Source: Pestalotiopsis fici W106-1
Taxonomy: Eukaryota > Ascomycota > Sordariomycetes > Amphisphaeriales > Sporocadaceae
Reading direction: 5' to 3'
Length of the DNA stretch: 64,000 nt
NCBI RefSeq assembly: GCF_000516985.1
Contig: NW_006917096.1
Span: 3,581,606 to 3,645,605 of the forward strand
Of the stretch, positions 25,235-44,307 are shown piece after piece. The position numbers and the translations under genes were made by a program. The notes beneath the pieces were generated by a model. That model saw nothing but the letters and a program-made list of their open reading frames with translations, was not told the origin of the DNA and searched no databases. Numbering within the stretch: position 1 is the stretch's first letter; each line of letters starts with the position of its first letter.

Positions 25235-25305
25235 TGCATTAGCCGCGAATCGAACGCGGGGCCCATCGATGGCAACGATGGATTTTACCACTAAACCACT
25301 AATGC
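25235..25305 (-). tRNA. tRNA-Gly (anticodon GCC)
   Basis: Reading the minus strand from 25305 gives a 7-bp acceptor stem (GCATTAG with CTAATGC), the A-box region GTGGTTTAGTGGTAAAAT, an anticodon loop with GCC, the T-arm GCGTTCGATTCGC and a discriminator A. The length is 71 nt with no intron, as expected for eukaryotic tRNA-Gly. Confidence 0.95.
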
Positions 25306-25466
25306 TGGATTGTGTTGTCATGGGATGATGAATTAATGGAGACGTAAATGAATAGAAAACACAAGGTTTTCATAAAATGGAGTGCGTGCCGGAATCAAAT
25401 AGTGAGGGCATCGCAAGCACACACTTGGGTGGGCAACGCAGAGTATGGATGGTTAGGAGTGGAGGT

Positions 25467-25527
25467 GTGCGGATACGACCTTCTGGATCCGGCTCTGGTG
25501 CTAATAAAGCGGCCGTTTATCTACCTA
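25467..25527 (+). repeat. 61-bp direct repeat, left copy
   Basis: About 90% identical (55 of 61) to 36375-36435, same orientation. Five of the six differences are C/T or G/A transitions, in both directions. It lies 162 bp from tRNA-Gly and just outside the catabolic cluster. Confidence 0.8.
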
Positions 25528-25597
25528 CTCTGGTGCATGGAAATTATCATCCACTATTTGACACTAAGCTCCACGGGCGGTACCGCAAACTTACGAG

Positions 25598-25627
25598 GCG
25601 ATATCGCAGTATTCACAGCGTTATCGC
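25598..25627. promoter_or_regulatory. GCGATATCGC palindrome plus near-copy
   Basis: Exact GCGATATCGC at 25598-25607 and GCGTTATCGC (one mismatch) at 25618-25627. This is the same palindrome found in the promoters of the cluster genes. Here it lies about 200 bp beyond the stop codon of the MFS permease and not in front of any recognised gene. Confidence 0.45.
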
Positions 25628-25808
25628 AAATTCCTTCGCCAAACGTAGTGGGTGTGGTTTTAGGGTACTAACACGATATCAGGGCAAAAGAAAGGGAAGT
25701 TGGTTTGGGGGATACCGCAGACTGGATACGATGTAGAAAATATGCCATAGAGCTTATCTCACCACATACGTTGCTCGTCGATGATCAGGTCGAAATAAAT
25801 ATTTGCCA

Positions 25809-27538
25809 CTACAGCTTGTACTTGAACAAAGGCGACTTATCACCCATATCCGCTAGCTCATCATCTGTGTACTTCATCTTGATCTCCTCGAATGTGTACT
25901 TCTCGTTGGTCTTGTTGATGCGCCATAGCAAGAACTCTAGAGCAAGGGCCGCTACAATGCCTGCAGCAGCCATACCAAGTGACATACCAAAGCCAGTGGG
26001 ATACTTCGGAGCCTCACTCTCGACGTAGATGAAGGAGCCTGCAAGACCACCAGCACTGGCAAAAGTACCTAGTAGACCGATACCCACGTTTCGCTTCGCT
26101 GGACCTGCGAGATTGTTCGAGTTCCATGCGTTGGCGCCAGGGATGATAGGATACAAACCGATGCAAGCCAGAGAGACAGCGAAGTAGTTCTCGGCGATAC
26201 GGTTCTTAATATCCTGAGAGTACGCGCAAGTGATGGCAAAGCCGATGAGAACCAAGATCTGGGGCCCAACGATGAAGGGCATGCGCCACTTGAACCGATC
26301 AGCAAAGCGGGCTGACAAGTAAGCACTGATAGCCCCCAGCACATAAGGCGGGATGGTGAGGAGTTGGGCGTTAGCCGAGGTGTAGCCCATGTTCTTCATT
26401 ATCTGGGGCATGGTAAACTTGAAGCCGTAATTGGGGATAGTGTTGGAAAGCGCGATGATGGCCTGTAGGTAGATCTTCCAGTCGGTCAGGGTGGCCAATA
26501 CGACCTTGCCAGTAATCTTGTGGCCCTTGGCCTGGACTTCGCGGCCACCATCCTCAATCTCCTTACGCAGAGTCAAGTAGCGCTTCTCGTCTTCGGTAAG
26601 CCAATTTGAAGCAGCGGGTGTGTCGATTATTATGAAGGGACAAGCGAGTCCAATGATGGTACTGACACCGCCCTCTAGGAGGAAGATCCATCGCCATCTG
26701 TAAAAGACGAATTAGTAAACCCCAGTCGGTGACCAAGCCCATATGCGGCTGCGACTCACCCCTCGTATCCACCAATACCGTCCATCTTGGCAATAAGATA
26801 GGCCAAGAGGCCTGAGAAGGCACCGGCCAAGGCGCTTGATGTGTAAAAGAGGGCGACACGGACACCAACCTCACTCCAATTGTACCAGTTGGTGACGATG
26901 AGGATAGCGCCAGGGAAGAAACCCGCCTCTGTCACGCCCAGAAGCACACGACATACAAGCAGACCAGCATAGTTCCGGACAAAGCCACTGCAGAGCAGGA
27001 CAGTGCCCCAAGTCGTTGTCATGATGGCGATCCAGAGCGAAGGGCGCTTGAACCACTTGAGTGCCATGTTCGCGGGGATCTCTGTTCCAGTTGTACGCGT
27101 TAGAAAATTGCTCTTCACGCCAAGACGAGGAGAGGAGTTGACGTGCCCAGGAGAATGTATGGAATGAAGAAGATGGCTAGAGCAACATTGAACTGATTTC
27201 CGGTGAGGCCAATGTCTACCGAGAGGCCCTCGATATTGGCATTTCCAATATTGGCACGGTCGAGGTAACTGATGAGGTAGAGGAATCCCAAAGCAGGAAT
27301 GAGGCGCCAGTCAATCTATTGGCACAGTCCAAGTCAGATGTCAGTGATCAAGGCCAACGTGAATGCGTTTACAAACCTTGCGGAGGAGTTTCATCCTCTG
27401 CTCCTCAGTGAATCTGTTCATAAAGGCAGCATCGTCCTCGCTCAGAAGAGCATAGGGCATTGCTTCTTCTTGGGTCATTTTGGGGTCCCCCCTGACTTCA
27501 GCCATGGTGACATCTGGCTTCTCGTTGTCGAGTGACAT
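25809..27538 (-). CDS. MFS permease, allantoate/anion-cation symporter (Dal5-like) family, 513 aa
   Basis: Four exons: 27538-27377, 27315-27147, 27081-26760 and 26697-25809. Intron 2 (27146-27082, 65 nt) starts GCACGT, a GC-AG intron. It is chosen because it alone restores the family block FFIPYILLEIPANMALKWF, and it has a CTAAC branch site. The product has 12 predicted membrane helices. Its SYLDRANIGNANIEGL loop and GGYEGWRWIFLLEG segment are typical of the Dal5-like anion:cation symporter family, which imports allantoate, nicotinate and other organic anions. Both termini are hydrophilic and cytosolic. The gene is divergent from the DUF1446-DUF4387 gene, and their 750-bp shared promoter contains GCGATATCGC. 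Import of that enzyme's substrate is the natural inference. The actual substrate is unknown. Confidence 0.9.
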
Positions 27539-28286
27539 ACTGTATTGAGATGGGATGGAAACAAAGATAATGTCAAAAAGAAAAATACGACCTGAGCTTA
27601 ATACTGAAGAGAATAAGCCTAAAATCTGGTTGGGTGGGGGAAATAGGAGCATATGGAAGCAGATTGGCTTTTCTTATAGATACATAGGGACTATGAACTA
27701 ACTCAACAGACCAGCTGTTGGTGGTATTCTCGTGCATGGCCACTCGCACCCCATGAATGGAGGTCCAAGGTCTCGGGCAAAGCTAAAGACGAGTCATCCA
27801 ACATGGGGTCCGGGGCCCCGCAACCCACACCGGCAATATGTGGCAGGACTGCTGGAAACTTGGAATATGGCGCGTTGGCCGGTTTGTTCGAAGTTTGGAT
27901 CCCCTCGTTTTCGTTGGCCTGGGCCACCTGCACTTGCCCTGTCTTGGGCTCGCGCTGCGGAGCACGGCTTGCGTGATCGCTTTTTTATTCGGCATCGGAC
28001 ACGGCGGCCGATGCGATATCGCTTTGTGAGAAATCCCAGGTGATCATAATGGCGCGCGGCAACTCAGTCGAGGACTGGGGAATAATACATGGAGTATACC
28101 GTGAATTCCAGCTTTTGACGCAGTAGGGATTGGGGAAAATACAAAACTCCAGGTGGCTATATTAAAGACGCTCCCTACAAATAATTTGAAAATCATTTAA
28201 CCCCCCCCCTGGTTTTCCCCCTTCACCTTTCCTCACGGGTAACTTGTTTGAGATTCATTGTTACCAATCACAGTCCTGTCATTACA
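27539..28286. other. Divergent promoter region of MFS permease and DUF1446-DUF4387 gene
   Basis: Bidirectional intergenic region of about 750 bp. It contains the palindrome at 28013-28022 and a C-run near 28201-28210 just before the DUF1446 gene. No coding sequence was recognised. Confidence 0.7.
28012..28026 (+). promoter_or_regulatory. Candidate regulator site TGCGATATCGCTTTG
   Basis: Contains the palindrome GCGATATCGC (28013-28022) followed by TT, as in the ADH and MBL promoters. It lies about 265 bp before the DUF1446-DUF4387 start and about 475 bp before the MFS start. The inverted GCG/CGC triplets spaced by four bases suit a dimeric Zn2Cys6 protein. Binding is inference. Confidence 0.6.
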
Positions 28287-30379
28287 ATGACTGCCGCAGA
28301 TGTTGCTTCTAGGCCTTTGTGCCAGGTCATCACGCCCGTTGGTATGATGGGTTATGGCTTTTCAGAAGAGCAAGTGCAGGCCGCCCTCGAGAACTTCAGT
28401 CACTTTGCCACGCCTACAGCAATCATCCTTGATTCAGGTTCGACGGACTCCGGCCCCTCAAAATTGGCCCTAGGTACCACAACATGTCCTCGTTCATCCT
28501 ACGAACGAGATTTTCGGAAGCTGCTAGGCTTCAGCAAGAAGTACCAAGTGCCTCTGCTGATGTCGTCTGCGGGAGGCGATGGAAGCGATGAGCATGTGGA
28601 TCTCTTCTTGGAGATCATTCGTGAGATTGCCCAAGAGTCTGAGCACAGGTAAGTTCCAAAAAAAAAAAGGAAGAAAAGAGTAAGGGACCAAGTCTCAGCC
28701 GAGATACACTAACTCGGCGCAGCGATTGGAAGCTTAAAGTCCTTGCCATTTACTCCGAAGTTCCAAAGACTGTCGTCCTCGATAAGTTATCATCTGGAAA
28801 AATCCAAGGATGTGGCGAGTCGGTGCCTGCCTTGACGCCTGAAACGGTCGATGCCACACCGAGAATCGTAGCTCAAATGGGGCCGGAACCATTACTCGAC
28901 GCCATCAAGGCTCATCCAGATTACAATGTCCTCATAGCAGGACGAGCCTACGACCTGGCGCCTTATGTGGCTTTCACGGTCCAGAATGCTCTCAGTGCCC
29001 GCGGCCTTGCCGACTACACGGATCTCAGCCCGCAGGAGCTAGGCTGCATCTCGCACATGGGCAAGATCCTCGAGTGTGGCGGCCTGTGTGCTACGCCCAA
29101 GGGCCCGGGTGCGCTGGGCATTATGAATCAGGACCTCACTTTCGATATCCGACCCCTCGACCCCAAGTCCCGATGCACGCCTCTCAGTGTCGCTGCACAT
29201 ACCCTCTACGAGAAGACGCGACCAGATAAGCTCATCGGACCCGGAGGATACATCGATATAGCAAATTCCAAATTTAATCAGCTCGAAGATGGCAGGACAG
29301 TTCGCGTTCAGGGTTCGGTCTTTCACGCCAGTCGTCACGAAGGTACCACATACACCGTAAAACTGGAGGGCGCGCGCGTAGCAGGCTATCGCACGCTAAC
29401 CATGGGCTCTTTCAAGGACCCAATCCTCATTCCCCAGGTCCACTCGTTCCTCGATTCAGTCAAGGCGTTTGCCGGCTCGCAGCATAGTCACATAAGCGAG
29501 AAGTGGGACATTGGTTTCCACACGTATGGTTTCGACGAGCACAATCCTGACTTCGTGCCCAGTGAGGTCTTCGTCGTCGCCGAATGCATTGCCGAGTCGC
29601 AGGAGGTTGCCACCAGTCTTGCCTCAACAGTCAGGGTTCACTGCGTTCATGGCTCATATCCTAATCAAAAGGCCACCTCTGGCAACTTCGCAATGGGTAT
29701 CGGCGGCATGTTCGAGCTCGAGACAAAGCAGTGTGCTGAATTCTCCGTGTATCACCTCATGCCACTCCCGGAAGGTCAAGAAGGCTGTCGGCCGGCATCG
29801 ACCTCTCAGACAGATACCGATGGTCAAAGGGGGTTGTTCCGCTGGCAGGAATACACCATCGGCAATGGAAGTACATATAACAAAATCCGTGGTACAACAA
29901 CCGCCTCGGGCGCGGCAGTCTGCCAGCAGACAAAAAACCTTGCCAATTCTGCCAAACTCATGACCAACGGCAAAGCGGCGGTGCATAGGCAACTTAAGCC
30001 ATGCTTCGAGGGAAGGCCACAGACGCTCGTTGATGTTGCCAAGGTGGTCCGCTCAAAGAACTCAGGTCCGTATGAGATTACGCTCGATGTCATGTTTGAC
30101 AATATGGACGTCTACCAAACCATCAAAGCATCCGGTTTGCTTGACAGCAAATGCATCTCGCGCCTCTTTGGTGTACCCGAGGACGAGGTTATTTGGTGTG
30201 ACTTTTTCGACGTGGCTATGGCATTCAAAGCTACAATACCACGCAGACGCCGGGGACAGCCTGCTTGCTCAGGAGACTATCTCGAGAATGATGTTCATGG
30301 CTCTCAACAGTACATCCCGCTGGTCAAGCTCGCTCTGCCTGAAGGTTTGCAGCAGAAGCTCGAGGCTTTGAGTCAATGA
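28287..30379 (+). CDS. DUF1446 (AtuA-like) - DUF4387 fusion protein, 672 aa
   Basis: Exons 28287-28648 and 28723-30379, with a 74-nt GT-AG intron (CACTAAC branch site). Residues about 10-470 match the DUF1446/AtuA family, named for acyclic terpene utilisation. Visible features are an N-terminal GSTDSGP loop, LMSSAGGDGSDEHVD, LIAGRAYDLAPYVAF, HMGKILECGGLCATPKG and LDPKSRCTPLSVAAHTLYEKT. Residues about 560-670 match DUF4387 (GPYEITLDVMFDN through QYIPLVKLALPEGL). In bacteria these are generally separate proteins; the fusion is seen here directly. The biochemical reaction is not established to my knowledge, and a hydro-lyase or isomerase role in acid catabolism is only a guess. ATG 28287 is preferred to 28248, which would add 13 residues. 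The gene is the centre of the five-gene cluster. Confidence 0.88.
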
Positions 30380-30526
30380 TACTACGAGGATGAAAAAAAA
30401 AAAGTCGGAACTTTGTAATTAAATGAACATAGACTGAATCCACCATTTTTTATCTCACGAATGCCTACAAATAGCAAGAGACAAAGGTCGGATCCGTGCG
30501 TGATTGTCTTGACCCAAGACTCCAGT

Positions 30527-32547
30527 TCACCCTTTATCCAGGTTCAAAATTGAGTTTGAAATGTCATCAAACGGCGTGCTGTCCAAGAAGAGAGTTCCTG
30601 ACAAGAGATCTAGCCCAAACTGTGTGAGATCTCTTCTGGCCTCAGCAGCTGTGTAATCTCTAGGTCTTTGTCTCAGCACATCCTCACTGAACCGGCCTCG
30701 AGCCTGCCAGATAGACTGCACGACAATGTTGGCTGACATACGCGCCTGCACAGGTGCGACCATTGGCGGATCCTTTGTTGAGTCTGCACTACTCAGATAG
30801 GTTATGATGTCGCAAAGTCGCGCCCAGCTGTCATTTTCCAACTCGGAGCGTGAGTGTAGCAGCACCCATGCCTGCCCTATGTAGTTCTTGGCCGTGTCCT
30901 GATCAAGGTGCTCCGGAAACGCCAAGAGACGTAGGAGAACGTGCACCGCGTACACAATGGACGATCTTGCCGTCGCCGGCCATGGCTGAAGGGGCCTGTG
31001 AGAAGGGGCATGCTGGGCAGCCGTCGCAATGACTTGCGTCGCGTCGCGGCCTGCTTTAGAGAGAAATTTGGATGCTCGACTGTCGATACGAATGTTTTGG
31101 GTATCTGCCGTGAAGGCGAAGGAATATAGTTGCAGCTTCACTTTGAGTAGGGCCATTTCCGTGTATGTTGACATCTTATCTCCTATTTGCGTTTCAACTT
31201 CCTGGATTCCTCTCTCAAATATTCTCATCATATCAGTGCTCCCAGCTAGCAGCCCTGAGGACGATAGATCATTGTTCCCGAGAATGTTACAGATGTTGTA
31301 GCTCTGATATGCTATTTTCAATTGTTGTACGAGAACGGTGGGTAAGGCAACTTCTGACGTGCCGCGAACTACCGATAGTATGGTCGAGTCAAGAGGTACG
31401 GTACACGGAAGTCCCAGCTCGCTCGAAATTCTGTATTTATCAGAGTAAGTAGGGATGCTGATCTGCAAGGGATGATGGGGTAGATACGGCCTTACATTTG
31501 GTTAACAATAAAGCAGCCGATCCAGGCTTTAGTGAAGGCTAGAACTCCCATCGCATCAAGTCGATCGCCATACACAAAGTCGGAGAAGTGACATGGGCGG
31601 TGCAGTCCGGACCTTAACGCGATATGGGTAGCTGAGCCTGCGTACATCCAAGAAGGGTCTTCGCGGAGAGCCTTGAATGGAAAAGGCCACCAACAGAGCA
31701 GCAGAAGCGCCTGAACAGTTCCGAGGGGATGGTCTACTACTTCCTCAGTGCTGGTGGCAAGGGTTCTAACATGGGGTTCGAGCTGCAGGTGAAGCTGGCT
31801 GTATTTAGGGATGCTTTTAGATGCAATGGCAATCAAGACCCAGAAAAGCAGCTGGCTGCAACGTGGGTAGTTGAGATAAAATATGGAAGGCTCTGATAGT
31901 ATGGGGAAGAGATGATGGTATGATGTGAAATAGCTAGAAGATAACGTTAGTCAGGTAAAATCCCACGCAGCCCTGGTGAAGAAGTGATGCAGGCGAGCGC
32001 GCACCAATTAAGAATATCTGCAATCGCGACTGGTGATAATTCCAGTTCTCCTATTCTCCGCGTCTCAAATGCTGAATCTATAAAACAGGAGCCGTATTCA
32101 GGCACGGCGTAAATGTTATTTGCAAAGGATTGCGGTGTGCTGATAATGGGCAAGGGCTCTGCTGGGGAGTGGCCAGACCCCTGTTGATAAGTTCTCAAGT
32201 TTGCCGTTGGTGTAGGCGAAGCGTGAGTGGCATTTGACTTGATTTCCCTCAGCTCCTTCTCTATATCCTCTGCACGTCTAATGGAAATAGTCAGCATAAA
32301 TTTCACTTGTTCTTGCCCGGTCAACTTGCTTGCGTTTCGCGGTCCTCTGAAAGGATGGATCAATATGACAGCCAAGGGTGTGTTTGCGACATCTCGAACA
32401 GGGCCCCGGAAATGTCTCCTTTGGATCACATTTCACCTGCAAGCATATGATAAGCTTACCTCACTCTTCGAGAGCAATATACGGTAGGATGCGTACCTTC
32501 ATCTGACGACAGTTGACACACGTCCCGACCTTGCTTTGCGAGGCCAT
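30527..32547 (-). CDS. Zn(II)2Cys6 fungal transcription factor, 590 aa
   Basis: Five exons: 32547-32497, 32436-32330, 32277-32005, 31933-31496 and 31430-30527. Exons 1 and 2 encode a complete zinc cluster at residues 10-40, C-x2-C-x6-C-x9-C-x2-C-x6-C (CVNCRQMKVKC, then CSRCRKHTLGC). A basic linker (FQRTAKRKR) and a dimerisation helix (AEDIEKELREIK) follow. Intron 2 (32329-32278, 52 nt) begins GCAAGT: only this GC donor keeps the linker-coiled-coil frame. The remainder is a fungal-specific TF middle homology region (YFTSYHHLFPIL, then SGLHRPCHFSDF). It sits between the DUF1446 gene and the ADH gene and is divergent from the latter. Its 560-bp promoter holds GCGATATCGC, so it may control the cluster and itself. 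Confidence 0.9.
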
Positions 32548-33108
32548 AATGAAGAGGCAACTGTCACCCTTTCGCTTCAACTGGGTCACAGAGCGACCCC
32601 CTACATCTGATCCTCGCTATATCCGCGGAAGTCTATCAGATCATACGTTCAACGCGCCAGCGCGAAAATTATCATGATGTGTAATACTGACTTGAATTGA
32701 CATTGATCAAAGTCGAGGAGTCAAGTGGTGGGAAATTAATTCAATGTTCACTAGCCAGGTTCTCCGCTGCCGAACGACAGCCGAGTCATCTGGGGAGGGG
32801 CAACAGTCTGTTGCTTCCGTGCCAGAACCTAGAAAGGTAGCTTGAGGCCGAGGCTGTCAGACTGACCAATCGCAAAGGGCCGCGATATCGCTTATAGTGG
32901 GCCATGGTGTCGGTTCATCGACCCGATTTCGCCATTCAACTCCATGACGAAAGGCCATTGTCATTTATTCAAGCACATCAAACGGCAATACCCTGAAAAA
33001 CAGTTCCGGTAAAGTAGGCATATGCTATATATAGTACAAGAGAACAGCTTGGAGTCTTCTGGCAAGAAATACGGTTCATTCCATAATTCATAATCCTTCT
33101 CCGTCGCC
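32548..33108. other. Divergent promoter region of TF and ADH genes
   Basis: About 560 bp between divergent starts, with the palindromic site at 32882-32896. No coding sequence was recognised. Confidence 0.7.
32882..32896 (+). promoter_or_regulatory. Candidate regulator site CGCGATATCGCTTAT
   Basis: This 15-bp sequence is identical to the minus strand of 36125-36139 in the MBL promoter. It lies about 215 bp before the ADH start and about 335 bp before the TF start. The core is the perfect palindrome GCGATATCGC (32883-32892). Confidence 0.65.
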
Positions 33109-34430
33109 ATGGCTGCTGTTCCCACGATGGATGCAGTTGTCTTCCAGGGTAAGCTCCAGGTAAAGGTCGAACGCCGGCCAGTCCCAACCATCCAGGATGC
33201 TGGGGATATCATTGTGAAGGTCAAATACACGGCTCTATGCGGGAGGCAAGTCAGCACTGATACACCTTGATCTCTAGAGAAAAACGGCAAGTCTAACGGT
33301 TGATTTGAAGCGAATTGCATGTGTATCGTGGTCACCAGAAGTCTGAAAATGGCTTCATCATGGGCCACGAGTTCATTGGTGAAGTAGTGGAGACAGGATC
33401 CAAGGTCGTCACGGTCGTAAAAGGCGACACCATCATTTCCCCCTTCACCATCAGCTGCGGAGAATGCTTCTACTGTCAGCGTCAGTTATCGTCTCGCTGC
33501 GCAAAGGGCGCCCTTTTTGGGACTAAAGTACTTGATGGCGCCCAGGCAGAGTATTGTCGTGTGCCCCTAGCAGACAGCACTGTCGTCAAGGCCCCTCCCT
33601 CGATCGATAGCAAGAAACTTGTGCTCATGGCGGACATCTTCCCTACCGGATATTTTGCCGCCAAGAACGCTTTTGCCGGCCTGAGTCAAGATATAGTTGG
33701 TTCAAGTACAGTCGTTCTTCTCGGCTGTGGACCTGTTGGTCTCTGCGCTACCGTCAACGCACTAGAGTTTCGGCCGCAGCACGTCCTTGCTATCGACTCC
33801 GTTGAGGCGAGGCTAGATCAGGCAAAAGCCCTCGGGGCCGAGCCTTGGAATTTTCAGACCAATATGCAGGGCATCAGGGACCGCATCATGGAACTCACTG
33901 ACGGGCGAGGTGCTGATATCGTGATCGAGTCTGTGGGTCACAGTTCAGCTCTTCGGCTCGGATTCGAGCTCTTGCGTCCATGGGGAATCATCTCTAGTAT
34001 CGGTGTCCACAATGGGGAGATTCCATGGACAGGCAACGAGGCCTATGGAAAGAATTTGACTATCAAGATGGGAAGATGTCCTGTGCGGAGTATGTGCCCC
34101 TCGGTGTATTTCGCGGTCCACCCTATTGATAGTAACGATGCTAACACCCGACACGTAGGCCTTTTCAACGAAGCTCTCAATGTGCTAGCCAAAAAACAGC
34201 ATGATCTCGAGTAAGCCATCACATCTTGAATACACCCAAAGTACGAGCTCTAAACATACACAGCTTCATGATCGACAATATCAGGCCCATGTCTGATGCC
34301 GTTCAAGCGTAAGTGCCTGAGATTGGACCCAATCGTGAGTCTTTGGACTGATCGCATTCCTCAATTTCTTAGCTACGACGATTTCCACAACATGAAGTAT
34401 CAAAAAATAATTTTTGAGCCTGGCAAGTAA
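33109..34430 (+). CDS. Zinc-dependent alcohol dehydrogenase (MDR family), 379 aa
   Basis: Four exons: 33109-33245, 33311-34210, 34264-34308 and 34373-34430. Intron 1 (33246-33310) starts GCAAGT after AG, a textbook GC-AG intron. It restores ALCGSELHVYRGH, which contains the catalytic-zinc Cys. The catalytic His/Glu are in FIMGHEFIGEV. The structural-zinc lobe is present with four Cys (SCGECFYCQRQLSSRC). The cofactor fold shows LLGCGPVGLCA and an aspartate-ended strand (LAIDSVEARLDQAKALGAE), which favours NAD(H). The sequence resembles the formaldehyde dehydrogenase-like branch of zinc alcohol dehydrogenases. It probably oxidises a hydroxyl intermediate in the pathway served by the cluster. 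The substrate is unknown. The last two exons are short and encode the C-terminus (YQKIIFEPGK). Confidence 0.9.
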
Positions 34431-34753
34431 AGAATAATTCATGGCAAGGGACCGTTGTGGATCGAGCATGCGCAGCTCTTGATGCTCGAGAGTATTACCG
34501 GTATAATGCGGAGCTGCTTTAGTAGACAAAAAAGTTGAGATGACTCGCAATCAAACCAAAAAGAAATGTAAAAGCAAAAATGAACAGTTACAAATTGATG
34601 TAGCGGGATGCTCTTGGATCAGACCATAACTACTGCAAAGTCATCGCTCACGCTCACATTCACACAGAATACCGACGAGTGACCCAGAATCACTGAAATT
34701 GTACATCCTTGAAGCTTTCATTGGATCAATTATTACCAATCGTTCATATGACG
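34431..34753. other. Convergent intergenic region
   Basis: About 320 bp between the 3' ends of the ADH and MBL-fold genes. Nothing recognised beyond terminator-type AT-rich sequence. Confidence 0.5.
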
Positions 34754-35947
34754 TTATTTGATGATATCATTGAAGTCTCTCAAGAACGCCCAAAACATTC
34801 GGTCCCTCCATCCATGTTTCTTCCAATCATTCGCAGCTAGTGGAAACAGATCACCAATTTCTGTAACAGACTTGTCGTGTGCATATATGAACAGCACATT
34901 CTCGTCAGCATCAAGCTCCTGTGTCTTTCGCACAGTCTCTATGGCATCCTCAAGCGGAACGCCCCGGGCCGGGTCGAATATTGGATCCAGCGAGCATCTC
35001 CCCCGCGGTCGCTGAAGCCGCTCTATTACAGCACCTGGACAGGGGTAAAGCGAGGCTGATATGATTGGGTATTCAATGGTGTCGGGTAGTGGGATGTATT
35101 TGGATGGCCGCAGCTCACTTGCATGGTGGCACAAGTCCCCGCCCATGAATATAAATGTATCTGGATTCACAGTGGTCCGCGCAAGCCCCCCTAAGTGGCC
35201 GATTGCGTGTCCAGGAGTATCCAAGAGGTAGAAAGATCCATCACCAAAGAAGTCTATGGCTCGAAAACGGCCAATATGGATAGAGCTTCTGGTAAAGTCC
35301 AATTCGTTCACCTGCCTGTCTCTGCACAAGAAGAATGTTAGAATACAGGTGATTGGATAGAGCCGCACGGGTCGTAACATGGGCGCCGAGCAGAGCTAGA
35401 AAAGCTTACCTGACATCGGAAATTCGGATTGGAGAATCCTGACACTCTGGGTAAGCTGGCAAAAAGGCCTTTGTGAATCCTGGACCGACGACAAGCTCCG
35501 TGGTTGGAGGAAATTTGGAAAGGTCACCGATGTGATCCCAATGCCAATGACTATTTCACCATCAGTATTACGAAAAAGTACCCTCCCGATGCTAGTTTCA
35601 ACAAACCTCCACACAACACTGTGAATAGATGACAAATCTACGTGGTGCTTTTGAAGAACGTCTGGCACCTCGCAATTCACATCAATTTCGTACCCGTTTG
35701 TCTTGAGTCGATTTGATATAATAGGTGCAAAGTTCCTCCAATCTTTTGCGATACCGAGGTCAAATAGAATCTTCTTGCCATTGGCCGACTCAACAAGGAA
35801 AGACAATGATGGCATCTTCGGCATGTAGCCAAATCCGTCAAGTACAGGCGCCATCAGGCGGTCGGTCGGAATGCTGGAGATCGAGGAGCCGGCATCGATG
35901 ATACTCACGCGGGCCGCATGGCCCATGGGAACATTCCAGTTAGCCAT
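34754..35947 (-). CDS. Metallo-beta-lactamase-fold hydrolase, lactonase-like, 349 aa
   Basis: Three exons: 35947-35607, 35550-35410 and 35321-34754, with GT-AG introns of 56 and 88 nt. Splicing of exons 1 and 2 creates the metal-binding motif SHWHWDHIGD (HxHxDH, about residues 114-123). Further ligands follow in DTPGHAIGHLGG (His) and FMGGDLCHH (Asp). This is the ligand set of the dinuclear-zinc MBL superfamily, and the order and spacing resemble AHL-lactonase-like fungal members. There is no signal peptide, so the enzyme is likely cytosolic. It is convergent with the ADH gene and carries the shared palindrome in its promoter. A lactone- or ester-opening step in the cluster's pathway is plausible but unproven. 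Confidence 0.88.
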
Positions 35948-36109
35948 GCCTTGGTGATCTGAAGTCTGCGATAACGTGGTTGAACAGAATCCGACCGACT
36001 AGAGTTTAGAGGTCAGAAACATAATATACTTTGATTTCACAACGAAGCCTGCCCCCTACCCTTTGAGGAGCACACGTCGGTGGCGACGCCTAAGCCGAAC
36101 CCGCTAAGC

Positions 36110-36139
36110 GCGATATCGGCATCAATAAGCGATATCGCG
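36110..36139 (-). promoter_or_regulatory. Candidate tandem regulator sites in MBL promoter
   Basis: GCGATATCGG (36110-36119) and the exact palindrome GCGATATCGC (36129-36138). Read on the strand of the MBL gene, 36139-36125 is CGCGATATCGCTTAT, identical over 15 bp to the ADH promoter site and in the same orientation relative to the gene. It lies about 180 bp before the MBL start. Confidence 0.65.
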
Positions 36140-36374
36140 TTGACGGACGACGAAGTATAAGCAATGGAGAAAAACAAGGCGTTAGGAGCATCTTCCTAGC
36201 GTTGGAATTTTAGCACTCAGACCCTATCGCTCATGTCCCACACCAGAAACCGTCACGATATAGCCAGGTCAAAGGAAAGCGAGCGACTCGTTGAACAAAA
36301 TATCTGCCACGTCCTAGCTCAACCCTGTTTTAAAGAATCTTGTAAAGAGTGATATCGCAAGCAATGTCCAATAT

Positions 36375-36435
36375 GTGCGGATACGACCTTTTGGATCCGT
36401 CTCTAGTGCTAATAAAGCAGCCGTCTATCTGCCTA
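36375..36435 (+). repeat. 61-bp direct repeat, right copy
   Basis: About 90% identical to 25467-25527. Together the copies bracket the five-gene cluster, about 10.9 kb apart. No open frame or terminal structure identifies the parent element. Confidence 0.8.
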
Positions 36436-36932
36436 GGCCATACTCGATAATATACGTAACTTTTAGGTCTCCGGACTTGGATAAGGACGAGATGAGCACT
36501 CGAGCTCCATACGTCGAGCCGTGGGCGGGCGTCAATGTTTATGATAAAAGGGATGTAGCAAGCTGAACACACAGATCAGGAGGGGGGGGAGGATGGACCC
36601 CGGCACAGGTCGGGAATTGGATATAAAGAACGCCTTGACATTTTGTGACCTATCAACGATGGTCAACAGTAGACCTCTAGATATGGGATTTTCTGACATT
36701 GGTACTTCACAGGTGGTCTGGTTCTTCGTCCGCTGCCAGATCTCGGCAGTCCTGCCAGCCGCCGTAGCGAATCTGACAGATGACGCACTAGCGCAAAACT
36801 CCCACGCTATGTTCAACCCACAACTGCACTGTCATTTCACGTCCAACTCTGGCAAAAAGACTTGCAAACGAATCGCAATCCATCCAGACACAAAGAAGAT
36901 CAAAAAGAATTGTCATGAAGGGCAAAAATGAG

Positions 36933-37032
36933 CGACGTTGGCCTGATTCGAACAGACGCTTCCGAAGAAACAAGATAGGATGATATGGGATCAATTCTAG
37001 TCTTGCGCATTAGACCACTCTGCCACAACGCC
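36933..37032 (-). tRNA. tRNA-Ser (anticodon AGA) with intron
   Basis: On the minus strand from 37032 the acceptor stem is GGCGTTG with CAACGTC (one G-U pair). The D-arm region is GGCAGAGTGGTCTAATG. The anticodon stem is CAAGA with TCTTG, and the loop starts CTAGAA. An intron of about 18 nt follows position 37. A long variable arm and the T-arm GTCTGTTCGAATCAGGC follow. The discriminator is G, as in eukaryotic tRNA-Ser. Length is 100 nt including the intron. Confidence 0.88.
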
Positions 37033-42385: not shown

Positions 42386-44307
42386 TTATATCCAGCCACC
42401 ATGTCCTGACGACCCAGGAGGGAGTACCTCTGGTGCTGTATATGTTCGCATTCGTGGTGCTGGGTATCTGTGCGCCGGTGCTCTCGATGCTGGAGGAGCT
42501 AATGGCCACTCATGGTTATTTTGGTAAAACGGGTCATTTTCGTTTCTGTCTCGAATGAATGACGCGGCTATAGGAGTAGTGCGACTCCTATGTACTGTCG
42601 CAATGGGTGTGACATGATCATTTCGGTAGGTCCTGAAATGCTGCTGCTGCTGCTGCTGCTGCTGTTTTTGCTGCCACTGCTGTTCTCTTTGCTGTTCTCT
42701 TTGCTGTTCTCTTTGCTGTTCTCTTTGCTGTTCTCTTTGCTGTTCTCTTTGCTGTTCCCGATGGTCTTGGAAATCCTCTCGGTACTCTTGACGAATTTGT
42801 ACAAATTCATTCTTTGGGGATTGATCCTGGAGCTCAATATCGCGGTCCCAAGGATTTGGCGTCGTCCCAGACGACACCGAATCGCCGCTAATGGCATCGT
42901 AGGGGTTCTTTCGCGTCGACTTGGTCCCGGATTTCGGTGTGGAGCCCGTCTTTGCGGCGCTCGACCTCTTGCGCGTCGTCCTGAACTCGTCCGGCCAAAT
43001 GTGCACAATGACGAGGCGTATGGTCGGCATGCAGAGCACAATGACCGTGACCTTGACTTCGAGCGACGTCCAGATGACTGGACTGGTATAGTCCCACGTG
43101 GGGTTGGACGACTTGGAGAACTGCAAAATGTGCAGCAGCCGGAAGCAGGCAGCCAGGACGACAAAGCTCCCCAGGCTGAACATGCAGAGCGTCATGAGCC
43201 GCTTCTTCCATGGCATGTTGAGCTGGACTATGATGGGCAGCGGTATAATCATAATGGTAAAGTCCTGTGCGATGCCCATGACAGCAGTGTAGATGGCGAG
43301 AATATTGACGTCGAGACATTGATGATGATCAGACGCCGCGGTTATCACCTCCCAATTGTAGCTTATGGGCCAGCATTGGAATACGACCACAAATATGTTG
43401 GCGATGGATGATAATACCACCCATACCATCACTATCCAACATATTTTGCGAAAGACTCTGATGGAAAAGACTCGGATGAGAAAGAGAAGCAAGCTCACGC
43501 GGCAGAGAGCCAGGACTGCAATATAAAATATTTCATCAATGAAGAAAAGCTGCCAAAGTCAGTTCAATGGTCGAGTGTAATCGTATCTGGTGGCCATACT
43601 TTTAATGCCGTCTGGATTGTGTTGACGTCGAGATCCCATATGTCACGACCAAGCGCTGTAATACGGACTACAGATGGCTTTTAGTGAATTGTCCACAAGA
43701 ATAGGCTCGTTGGAAGAGGGAAACTGACCGTAATTGCCGAGCACAATAAATGGCAAAAGGGTGAGGAGAATGGCAAACACAATCCAGTCGTCCGGCCCAA
43801 TTGTTTTGGCGATCTTGTATTTGCCTATTAGACGTACCAGCATAAAGAGCACCGTGGCAGTGTCAAGGACTAGGAATGGAGCTATATCCTCAGTTTGGTG
43901 TCGCTCTGCCCTGCCACATGCTACTTCATCGGTCTTGGCGAGTTCTAAAGAATGTATCAGTATACAAGGCAGATTGACTCGAGGCGGGAGCGAGGAGTTC
44001 CTACGCAGTCTTTCTAGTACTGTACAGCTTGCCGATACACAGTCATTGACGGCATCGTATAGTGAAGAATCTTCGCAGATACAAGTCGAGTTCGTCACCG
44101 AGTGGCAAGCGGAGTCGGGCACTACCTCGAGTATACATTGCAACTAAAGGTGTTGTTTGTGAGCGTCCTGCCAAACATGAATATCATCAATGAATTGGAA
44201 CCCACCCCGCATGCTGGAATCTGGTCGGCATAATCGAGAAAGCTTTTCGCGTGACTTAGGCTGAACAGAAACGTGGCTGCCAACACGTACAGCCGTACGA
44301 TCCTCAT
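42386..44307 (-). CDS. CFEM-domain PTH11-like seven-helix receptor, 558 aa
   Basis: Five exons: 44307-44206, 44143-44005, 43944-43729, 43655-43600 and 43549-42386, all GT-AG and phase-consistent. A signal peptide (about 1-20) precedes a CFEM domain with eight cysteines (IPACG, LQC, DSAC, STCIC, NDC, SASC, VAC). Then come seven predicted membrane helices with the rhodopsin-like fungal motifs DDWIVF, ALGRDIWDL and FQCWPISYNW. This is the PTH11 class of fungal G-protein-coupled-type receptors, which sense surfaces or ligands in host-associated fungi. The cytosolic tail (about 360-558) is basic, then contains seven tandem REQQ units and a Gln run (about 436-478), and ends Pro-rich. The ligand is unknown. 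Confidence 0.9.
42643..42765 (-). repeat. REQQ minisatellite and CAG/Gln repeat inside receptor tail
   Basis: Seven near-perfect 12-bp units (TGCTGTTCTCTT on the plus strand) encode REQQ repeats. They are followed by a CTG/CAG triplet run coding for Gln. Repeat-unit identity at DNA level suggests recent expansion. The open frame visible on the opposite strand is a by-product of this repeat. Confidence 0.9.

What the first reader, a model, noticed from the sequence alone, without database searches (positions are those of the whole stretch)
25598..36139. A 10-bp palindrome, GCGATATCGC, marks the promoters of one five-gene cluster
Exact copies were found only at 25598, 28013, 32883 and 36129. 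Chance would give about 0.06 copies of a given 10-mer in 64 kb. Three sit in the MFS/DUF1446, TF/ADH and MBL promoter regions, 180-265 bp before the DUF1446, ADH and MBL starts. The ADH and MBL sites share 15 bp (CGCGATATCGCTTAT) in the same orientation relative to their genes, and near-copies lie beside the first and last. The inverted GCG/CGC triplets spaced by four bases suit a dimeric Zn2Cys6 protein, and the cluster encodes one. This looks like an undescribed regulon operator. The copy at 25598 has no obvious target gene.
Basis: partly seen in the sequence, partly recalled or inferred. Interest (0 to 1): 0.85.

Follow-up and report, generated by a model that had tools for sequence, protein, structure and literature searches.

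The report
Private operator of transferred gene cluster
A short palindromic DNA word repeated at the promoters of one five-gene cluster in a fungus is most likely the landing site of the cluster's own regulator, a relative of the yeast Leu3 protein, and the cluster appears to have been passed between distantly related fungi, perhaps together with this switch.

Summary
Genome-wide there are 53 copies, about what chance gives, but four within 10.5 kb has P about 1e-5. The window matches Pestalotiopsis fici W106-1.

Among 120 triplet-pair and spacing combinations, GCG-N4-CGC is the most enriched in the cluster's non-coding DNA (8 seen, 0.4 expected). It adds two sites beside 25598, making a three-site array, and weaker sites in two promoters. 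Among solved structures the cluster's Zn2Cys6 domain matches only yeast LEU3. Leu3/LeuB bind CCG-N4-CGG, the same everted geometry with another outer base. I conclude that this is the private operator of a Leu3-class regulator. Binding is inferred, not shown.

Two additions. Protein trees of the AtuA-like and MBL genes group P. fici with ambrosia Fusarium against the species tree, which suggests horizontal transfer. A 62-bp direct repeat, found at only two places in the genome, brackets the five genes and every exact operator copy. Conservation of the operator in other fungi could not be tested, because no fungal relatives' DNA is held.

The parts
25577..25586 (.). GCGGTACCGC, first site of the left three-site array (GCG-N4-CGC)
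25598..25607 (.). GCGATATCGC, exact copy 1, middle of the left array; no visible target gene
25618..25627 (+). GCGTTATCGC, third site of the left array (start-to-start steps 21 and 20 bp)
27971..27980 (+). GCGTGATCGC, secondary GCG-N4-CGC site in the MFS/AtuA divergent promoter
28013..28022 (+). GCGATATCGC, exact copy 2, MFS/AtuA divergent promoter
32654..32663 (.). GCGCCAGCGC, doubtful GCG-N4-CGC candidate in the TF/ADH divergent promoter
32882..32891 (+). GCGATATCGC, exact copy 3, TF/ADH divergent promoter
36110..36119 (+). GCGATATCGG, near copy 19 bp from exact copy 4
36129..36138 (-). GCGATATCGC, exact copy 4, MBL promoter
36349..36358 (+). GTGATATCGC, near copy just inside the right 62-bp repeat
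25809..27538 (-). MFS transporter gene (exon borders not all settled)
   Evidence: MFS_1 on two exons: E 1.7e-9, and E 2.7e-7 (under the curated cut-off); imperfect models
28287..30379 (+). AtuA (DUF1446) + DUF4387 fusion gene, 672 aa, exons 28287-28648 and 28723-30379; PFICI_09545
30527..32547 (-). Leu3-class Zn2Cys6 transcription factor, 590 aa, exons 32497-32547, 32330-32436, 32005-32277, 31496-31933, 30527-31430; second intron taken as GC-AG; PFICI_09546
33109..34214 (+). zinc-dependent alcohol dehydrogenase gene (a 3' exon to 34430 is possible)
34754..35947 (-). metallo-beta-lactamase-fold hydrolase gene, 349 aa, HWHWDH motif; PFICI_09549
25466..25527 (+). left copy of the 62-bp direct repeat
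36374..36435 (+). right copy of the 62-bp direct repeat, 90% identical; no third copy found in the genome

Best explanation
The palindrome is the operator of the cluster's own regulator. Anatomy (shown): five genes share three promoter regions, MFS/AtuA divergent, TF/ADH divergent, and MBL. Each region has exactly one GCGATATCGC, and a weaker GCG-N4-CGC or one-mismatch site lies in each. A three-site array marks the left edge. Mechanism (inferred): the Leu3-class Zn2Cys6 protein binds as a homodimer to two everted CGC triplets four bases apart. From there it switches on or off the transporter, the AtuA-DUF4387 enzyme, the alcohol dehydrogenase, the MBL-fold hydrolase and its own gene, probably in response to the pathway's substrate. 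The site in the TF/ADH region would give autoregulation. The set looks like a small catabolic module with uptake, hydrolysis, oxidation and a regulator. If regulator and sites travel together, the module can be controlled in a new host, which fits the evidence that it was transferred horizontally.
For: Local density: 4 of 53 genome copies within 10.5 kb, P about 1e-5. The second, CGA-N2-TCG (P 2e-4), is the inside of the same palindrome; the third is P 0.012. The sites other than the four exact copies remain enriched by themselves (4 against 0.38, P 6e-4), and the enrichment holds against ORF-free DNA of the window, 8 against 0.27. The regulator's DNA-binding domain (54 residues) hits only LEU3 in the PDB at E 0.01 or better (2er8/2ere and 2erg; best E 2.6e-8), gapless over the zinc cluster and linker. 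LeuB of Aspergillus fumigatus binds CCGN4CGG, and changing one triplet abolishes binding (PMC6221358, passages seen). Motif and that site share the CG of both triplets and the 4-bp spacing. None of the listed motif places is near the two AtuA paralogues found in this genome (C1:3.626 Mb, C5:0.417 Mb).
Against: No binding or expression data. The outer base of the triplet differs from Leu3's CGG, so specificity is assumed to have shifted. Elsewhere in the genome the sequence is at chance frequency, so most copies are presumably not bound. Over the whole window GCG-N4-CGC is not in excess (18 against 13.3; 11 of 100 shuffles reach it); only the module is enriched. Against a background of 217 kb that included loci fetched for holding the motif, a copy in each of the three promoters gave only P 2.7e-3, and three unrelated 7-mers were shared by all three with P 3e-4 to 9e-4. 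The left array has no visible target, and 32654 GCGCCAGCGC is a poor site. The motif was picked after reading, so its P values are not a priori, although the triplet-spacing scan is less exposed to this. In an exon-by-exon search with the yeast Leu3 domain, two other loci of this genome score better than the cluster's own. Conservation in Fusarium or Clonostachys promoters could not be tested.
Confidence: 0.74

Rival explanations
1. A different, host-encoded regulator binds the palindrome, for example another of the genome's many Zn2Cys6 proteins, and the cluster's own factor uses another site.
For: Zn2Cys6 proteins are numerous: 21 matches at E 1 or better to this DNA-binding domain in the genome, 3 of them the cluster's own. 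Two other loci match the yeast Leu3 domain better exon by exon. Three 7-mers unrelated to the palindrome are shared by all three promoters.
Against: All 8-, 9- and 10-mers present in the three promoters are pieces of this palindrome and its AA/TT extension. A host-wide factor should leave more copies in promoters elsewhere; 30 of 47 other copies examined are in long ORFs, as expected by chance. Of the 18 other matches, the nearest listed motif copy is about 67 kb away (2 of 53 places are unlisted).
Confidence: 0.12
2. A GATA factor (nitrogen or iron regulation) uses the GATATC core, which reads GATA on both strands.
For: In module non-coding DNA GATATC is in excess (7 against 1.1, P 2e-4), and so is plain GATA (29 against 17.4, P 0.007).
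Against: The excess of GATATC vanishes once the CG flanks are removed (2 against 1.7), and the fungal GATA consensus HGATAR (recalled) is at 9 against 5.3, P 0.09. Sites 25577 and 25618 keep the triplets but not GATATC.
Confidence: 0.04
3. The palindromes are structural or recombinational marks of the module, for example traces of how it moved, and not operators.
For: Sites lie near both ends, close to the 62-bp direct repeats.
Against: Two of the four exact copies lie inside the module, in divergent promoters. Site-to-gene distances are promoter-like (182 to 265 bp). The direct repeats themselves hold no copy.
Confidence: 0.06
4. Chance clustering picked out by a reader scanning for palindromes.
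For: The genome total of 53 is close to the 49 expected; three other pairs of copies lie within 10.5 kb of each other on contig C1.
Against: P about 1e-5 for four in 10.5 kb, about 0.01 even after allowing for 1,024 palindromic 10-mers (my arithmetic). In addition, one copy falls in each promoter region, the 12-bp extension has a consistent orientation, and further GCG-N4-CGC sites are in excess.
Confidence: 0.03

Closest known systems
Leu3 / LeuB operator, CCG-N4-CGG everted repeat (S. cerevisiae, Aspergillus)
   Same: 10-bp site, everted triplets, 4-bp spacing, CG shared in each triplet; the regulator's zinc cluster and linker align with LEU3.
   Different: Outer base of each triplet differs (GCG...CGC). 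The cluster's genes are a transporter, AtuA-DUF4387, ADH and MBL, not branched-chain amino-acid genes. Four of the eight sites have the core ATAT.
Cluster-specific Zn2Cys6 regulators of fungal gene clusters (e.g. TerR of the terrein cluster, PMC4360782, seen only in the search listing)
   Same: A pathway-specific regulator encoded in the cluster with its sites in the cluster's promoters.
   Different: The five genes here include no synthase; the set looks catabolic. The site form GCG-N4-CGC was not seen for fungi in the listings.
Horizontally transferred fungal metabolic gene clusters (recalled as a class)
   Same: Protein trees against the species tree.
   Different: Bracketed by a 62-bp direct repeat found at only two places in the genome.

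Membership tests
Leu3/LeuB class of Zn2Cys6 regulators | C6 zinc cluster with the LEU3-like spacing and linker | tested here: met
   PF00172 E 1.6e-6 and PF04082 E 1.2e-13; only LEU3 chains in the PDB at E 0.01 or better, best E 2.6e-8, gapless over 45 residues
Leu3/LeuB class of Zn2Cys6 regulators | Everted triplets spaced by 4 bp in target promoters | tested here: met
   GCG-N4-CGC ranks first of 120 combinations in the module's non-coding DNA; protein-DNA contact itself not tested
Leu3/LeuB orthologue (amino-acid regulator) | CCG-N4-CGG sites | tested here: not met
   of 12 in the window, the only one between the direct repeats, at 30970, is inside the TF gene; 36519 lies outside the right repeat
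Leu3/LeuB orthologue (amino-acid regulator) | Targets in branched-chain amino-acid synthesis | tested here: inconclusive
   the cluster's genes are MFS, AtuA-DUF4387, ADH and MBL; targets elsewhere in the genome were not examined
Leu3/LeuB orthologue (amino-acid regulator) | Control by alpha-isopropylmalate (recalled) | not testable with these tools
   needs biochemistry
Horizontally transferred cluster | Gene trees reject the species tree in more than one gene | tested here: met
   AtuA p-AU 0.003 and MBL p-AU 3.9e-5 against Fusarium+Clonostachys. TF tree agrees, no AU test, long branches flagged. MFS and ADH not tested. Rows hand-picked: 25 of 120, 26 of 120 and 10 of 17 listed hits; quick trees; AtuA groups tested after its tree was seen
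Horizontally transferred cluster | Patchy presence, absent from close relatives | tested here: inconclusive
   the P. fici clusters (90% identity) of AtuA, MBL and TF have 1 member each; the two other-Pestalotiopsis rows taken into the trees fall with paralogues. Genome-level absence not checked
Starship or other self-moving element | Own recombinase or transposase gene inside the boundaries | tested here: inconclusive
   the five genes recognised between the repeats are metabolic or regulatory; no recombinase-specific search was run

The most novel reading that the evidence does not exclude
The 10.9 kb between the 62-bp direct repeats is a self-contained transferable unit, carrying a catabolic pathway, its Leu3-class regulator and a private operator set with a shifted half-site (CGC instead of CGG). 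It entered P. fici in one event that left a 62-bp direct repeat between two tRNA genes. The left operator array is the surviving promoter of a sixth gene lost at the junction.
Probability: 0.22. Interest if true: 0.75.

Novelty: new variant of a known kind. Interest (0 to 1): 0.58.

Why it matters
If right, this pairs a Leu3-class regulator with a changed half-site and names its candidate target sites in one small cluster. That makes the triplet specificity of a very large family of fungal regulators directly testable. It also suggests how a metabolic cluster can work on arrival in a distant fungus: regulator and operators move as one block. The direct repeats bracketing the block give a possible footprint of the transfer itself.

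Tried and rejected
A GATA-factor reading was rejected: GATATC without the CG flanks is not in excess, though plain GATA is (29 against 17.4). A StuA-like reading (pattern recalled) was rejected too (1 against 1.1). CCG-N4-CGG as the cluster's site was rejected. A genome-wide regulon was rejected: the total of 53 is at chance and other copies show no promoter bias. The three close pairs on contig C1 are more than expected (P 0.01). Two of the six sites lie in ORFs of unrelated genes, proline racemase and CRT10, and a third in a 282-aa ORF without a Pfam match, so no second regulon was claimed. Is the 62-bp repeat a mobile repeat family or a known RNA? Only two places in the genome (the tool calls repeat counts lower bounds) and no Rfam match in the window. 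A sixth gene at the left edge: two ORFs there have no Pfam match. My hexamer coding scores were too weak to use. The automatic gene models were partly wrong. The start of the TF and the MBL exons were then set by constraint; the MFS exons and the ADH 3' end remain unsettled. Papers on six locus tags and on DUF4387: none. A search combining DUF names with 'fungi' and one on catabolic clusters (no paper) gave nothing useful; one on P. fici and transfer listed 10 of 39 papers, of which I looked at passages of one.
Full report
OBSERVATION. GCGATATCGC is present at 25598, 28013, 32882 (not 32883) and 36129 and nowhere else in the window; 0.05 copies are expected and 0 of 100 shuffles had 4. Allowing one mismatch gives 11 against 1.6. 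Of 55 palindromic 10-mers present in the window it is the only one with three or more copies. Of 36 10-mers with four or more copies, 18 were set aside for low complexity; among the rest only this one has four copies inside 10.5 kb outside one 12-bp tandem repeat. The genome holding the window (G000, 51.7 Mb, 20 contigs) has 53 copies against 22 of the reversed control, near the 49 of plain chance (my arithmetic). So the word is not common, and what is unusual is its concentration: 4 of 53 within 10,541 bp, seen in 1 of 100,000 simulations.

WHOSE GENOME. The AtuA-like and MBL proteins are 100% identical to PFICI_09545 and PFICI_09549 of Pestalotiopsis fici W106-1, and the TF's best match is PFICI_09546 (94% by BLAST; 99%; the annotated form differs at the start). 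Contig C3 (6,145,034 bases) has exactly the contig length given for PFICI_04822. C6 (3,900,538) is close to, but not the same as, the 3,909,710 given for the cluster's proteins, so assembly versions may differ slightly. The published assembly is 52 Mb (PMC4320822, passages seen).

THE CLUSTER. Between two 62-bp repeats lie five genes: an MFS transporter (minus; MFS_1 on two exons), an AtuA/DUF1446-DUF4387 fusion (plus), a Zn2Cys6 regulator (minus; PF00172 and PF04082), a zinc alcohol dehydrogenase (plus) and an MBL-fold hydrolase with HWHWDH (minus). They share three promoter regions, and each of these holds exactly one GCGATATCGC. The sites are 265, 218 and 182 bp before the AtuA, ADH and MBL starts. 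In all three the 12-bp form GCGATATCGCTT faces the same way relative to AtuA, ADH and MBL. That form has 10 places in the genome, 3 of them here.

A WIDER, LESS POST-HOC TEST. In the module's 2,486 bp of non-coding DNA I counted 8 kinds of triplet pair at spacings 0 to 14 and compared them with the rest of the window. GCG-N4-CGC came first of 120, with 8 against 0.38 expected, P 7e-9. The second, CGA-N2-TCG (P 2e-4), is the inside of the same palindrome; the third has P 0.012. Against the ORF-free part of the window it is 8 against 0.27. Without the ATAT core, 4 remain against 0.38, P 6e-4. Over the whole window the pattern is not in excess (18 against 13.3); the excess is the module's. The added members are 25577 GCGGTACCGC, 25618 GCGTTATCGC, 27971 GCGTGATCGC and the doubtful 32654 GCGCCAGCGC; two more (26128, 31993) lie outside the non-coding stretches counted. 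The left copy is thus the middle of a three-site array with 21- and 20-bp steps, about two helical turns. GATA boxes do not explain the signal: GATATC without CG flanks is 2 against 1.7, although plain GATA is 29 against 17.4. A weaker test, against 217 kb that included loci fetched for holding the motif, gave P 2.7e-3 for a copy in each promoter; there all shared 8- to 10-mers were pieces of the palindrome and its extension, but three unrelated 7-mers were shared too.

THE REGULATOR. Spliced at a canonical intron and a GC-AG intron, its DNA-binding domain reads CVNCRQMKVKCDPKETFPGPCSRCRKHTLGC, followed by a linker. In the PDB its only matches at E 0.01 or better are LEU3 chains (2er8/2ere and 2erg, best E 2.6e-8), aligned without gaps (the last residue of that 54-residue query was read from the intron). 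Of the 8 homologues that keep this region intact, 7 have CRQMK and the most distant (P0012) has CRQLK. LeuB of A. fumigatus binds CCGN4CGG, and mutation of one triplet abolishes binding (PMC6221358, passages seen); CGG triplets are typical for well-studied Zn2Cys6 proteins (PMC5559640, passages seen). The motif has the same everted 4-bp geometry with the outer base changed. The only CCG-N4-CGG between the repeats, 30970, is inside the TF gene. The yeast Leu3 domain itself matches two other loci of this genome slightly better in an exon-by-exon search, so I place the cluster protein in the Leu3 class and do not call it the Leu3 orthologue.

SPECIFICITY TO THE CLUSTER. Of the 49 other genome copies I could place 47. 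Of these, 30 lie in ORFs of at least 150 aa, in loci that are 60% so covered, so there is no promoter bias. None of the listed copies is near the two AtuA paralogues found in the genome, and the nearest to any of the 18 other matches to this DNA-binding domain is about 67 kb away. Three other pairs lie within 10.5 kb on contig C1 (P 0.01); two of these six sites are in proline racemase and CRT10 ORFs.

ORIGIN OF THE CLUSTER. The best named relatives after P. fici are ambrosia Fusarium (the term is recalled): AtuA 88% and TF 83% in F. euwallaceae, MBL 86% in F. ambrosium. Clonostachys follows at 72, 54 and 66%. Fusarium and Clonostachys are both Hypocreales, while Pestalotiopsis is Amphisphaeriales. 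The trees join P. fici with Fusarium in all three proteins, support 99 to 100. The AU test rejects Fusarium+Clonostachys for AtuA (p 0.003) and MBL (p 4e-5). It also rejects P. fici AtuA grouping with PFICI_01096 and three homologues from its wider relatives (p 6e-8); since one of those is a paralogue in the same genome, old duplication with many losses could explain that last result alone. The groups follow the accepted taxonomy but those of AtuA were tested after its tree was seen, the trees are quick ones, and the rows are my selection (25 of 120, 26 of 120, 10 of 17 listed). The direction of transfer is open. MFS and ADH were not tested. For Hyaloscypha the records listed do not share a contig length, and linkage of the MBL gene was seen only in P. 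fici.

THE BRACKETS. A 62-bp direct repeat, 90% identical, lies at 25466-25527 and 36374-36435. Searches of the genome with either flank find no third place. The five genes and all sites in the parts list lie between the copies. Outside are tRNA-Gly(GCC) at 25235-25305 and an intron-bearing tRNA-Ser(AGA) at 36932-37032. A direct repeat with sharp borders around a cluster of discordant phylogeny is what an insertion could leave. Without relatives' DNA the empty site cannot be shown.

CONCLUSION. Shown: the sites, their geometry, their concentration, the class of the regulator, the discordant trees and the repeats. Inferred: that the cluster's regulator binds the sites as a dimer and controls all five genes, and that the module moved as a unit. 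Not tested: binding, expression, and conservation of the sites in other fungi. One search found 29 papers holding the string, of which the 20 listed showed no fungal operator; one search found one bacterial paper; two searches found none on the six locus tags tried or on DUF4387.

Noticed in passing
25466-25527 and 36374-36435: 62-bp direct repeat, 90% identical, found at only two places in the genome, bracketing the five-gene cluster and every exact operator copy.
   Followed up: partly
28287-35947 (AtuA, TF and MBL genes): Three cluster proteins are closest to ambrosia Fusarium (83-88%), against the species tree; probable horizontal transfer between Amphisphaeriales and Hypocreales, direction open.
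   Followed up: partly
32278-32329: The regulator's second intron appears to be GC-AG. The public proteins P0001-P0003 (P. fici, two Fusarium) lack an intact Zn2Cys6 domain, apparently through mis-splicing, so the regulator is recorded without its DNA-binding domain.
   Followed up: partly
25235-25305 and 36932-37032: tRNA-Gly(GCC) and an intron-bearing tRNA-Ser(AGA) flank the bracketed module on either side, both on the minus strand.
   Followed up: partly
25577-25627: Three-site operator-like array at the left edge with no recognisable target gene; possibly the promoter of a gene lost at the junction.
   Followed up: partly
genome contig C1: 688414/696247, 2872897/2874764, 4671447/4675945 (L001, L002, L006-L009): Three further pairs of the exact palindrome within 10.5 kb, more than expected (P 0.01); two of the six sites lie in ORFs of unrelated genes.
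   Followed up: partly
about 42678-42750: Tandem array of a 12-bp unit (GAGAACAGCAAA and rotations), about six copies.
   Followed up: no
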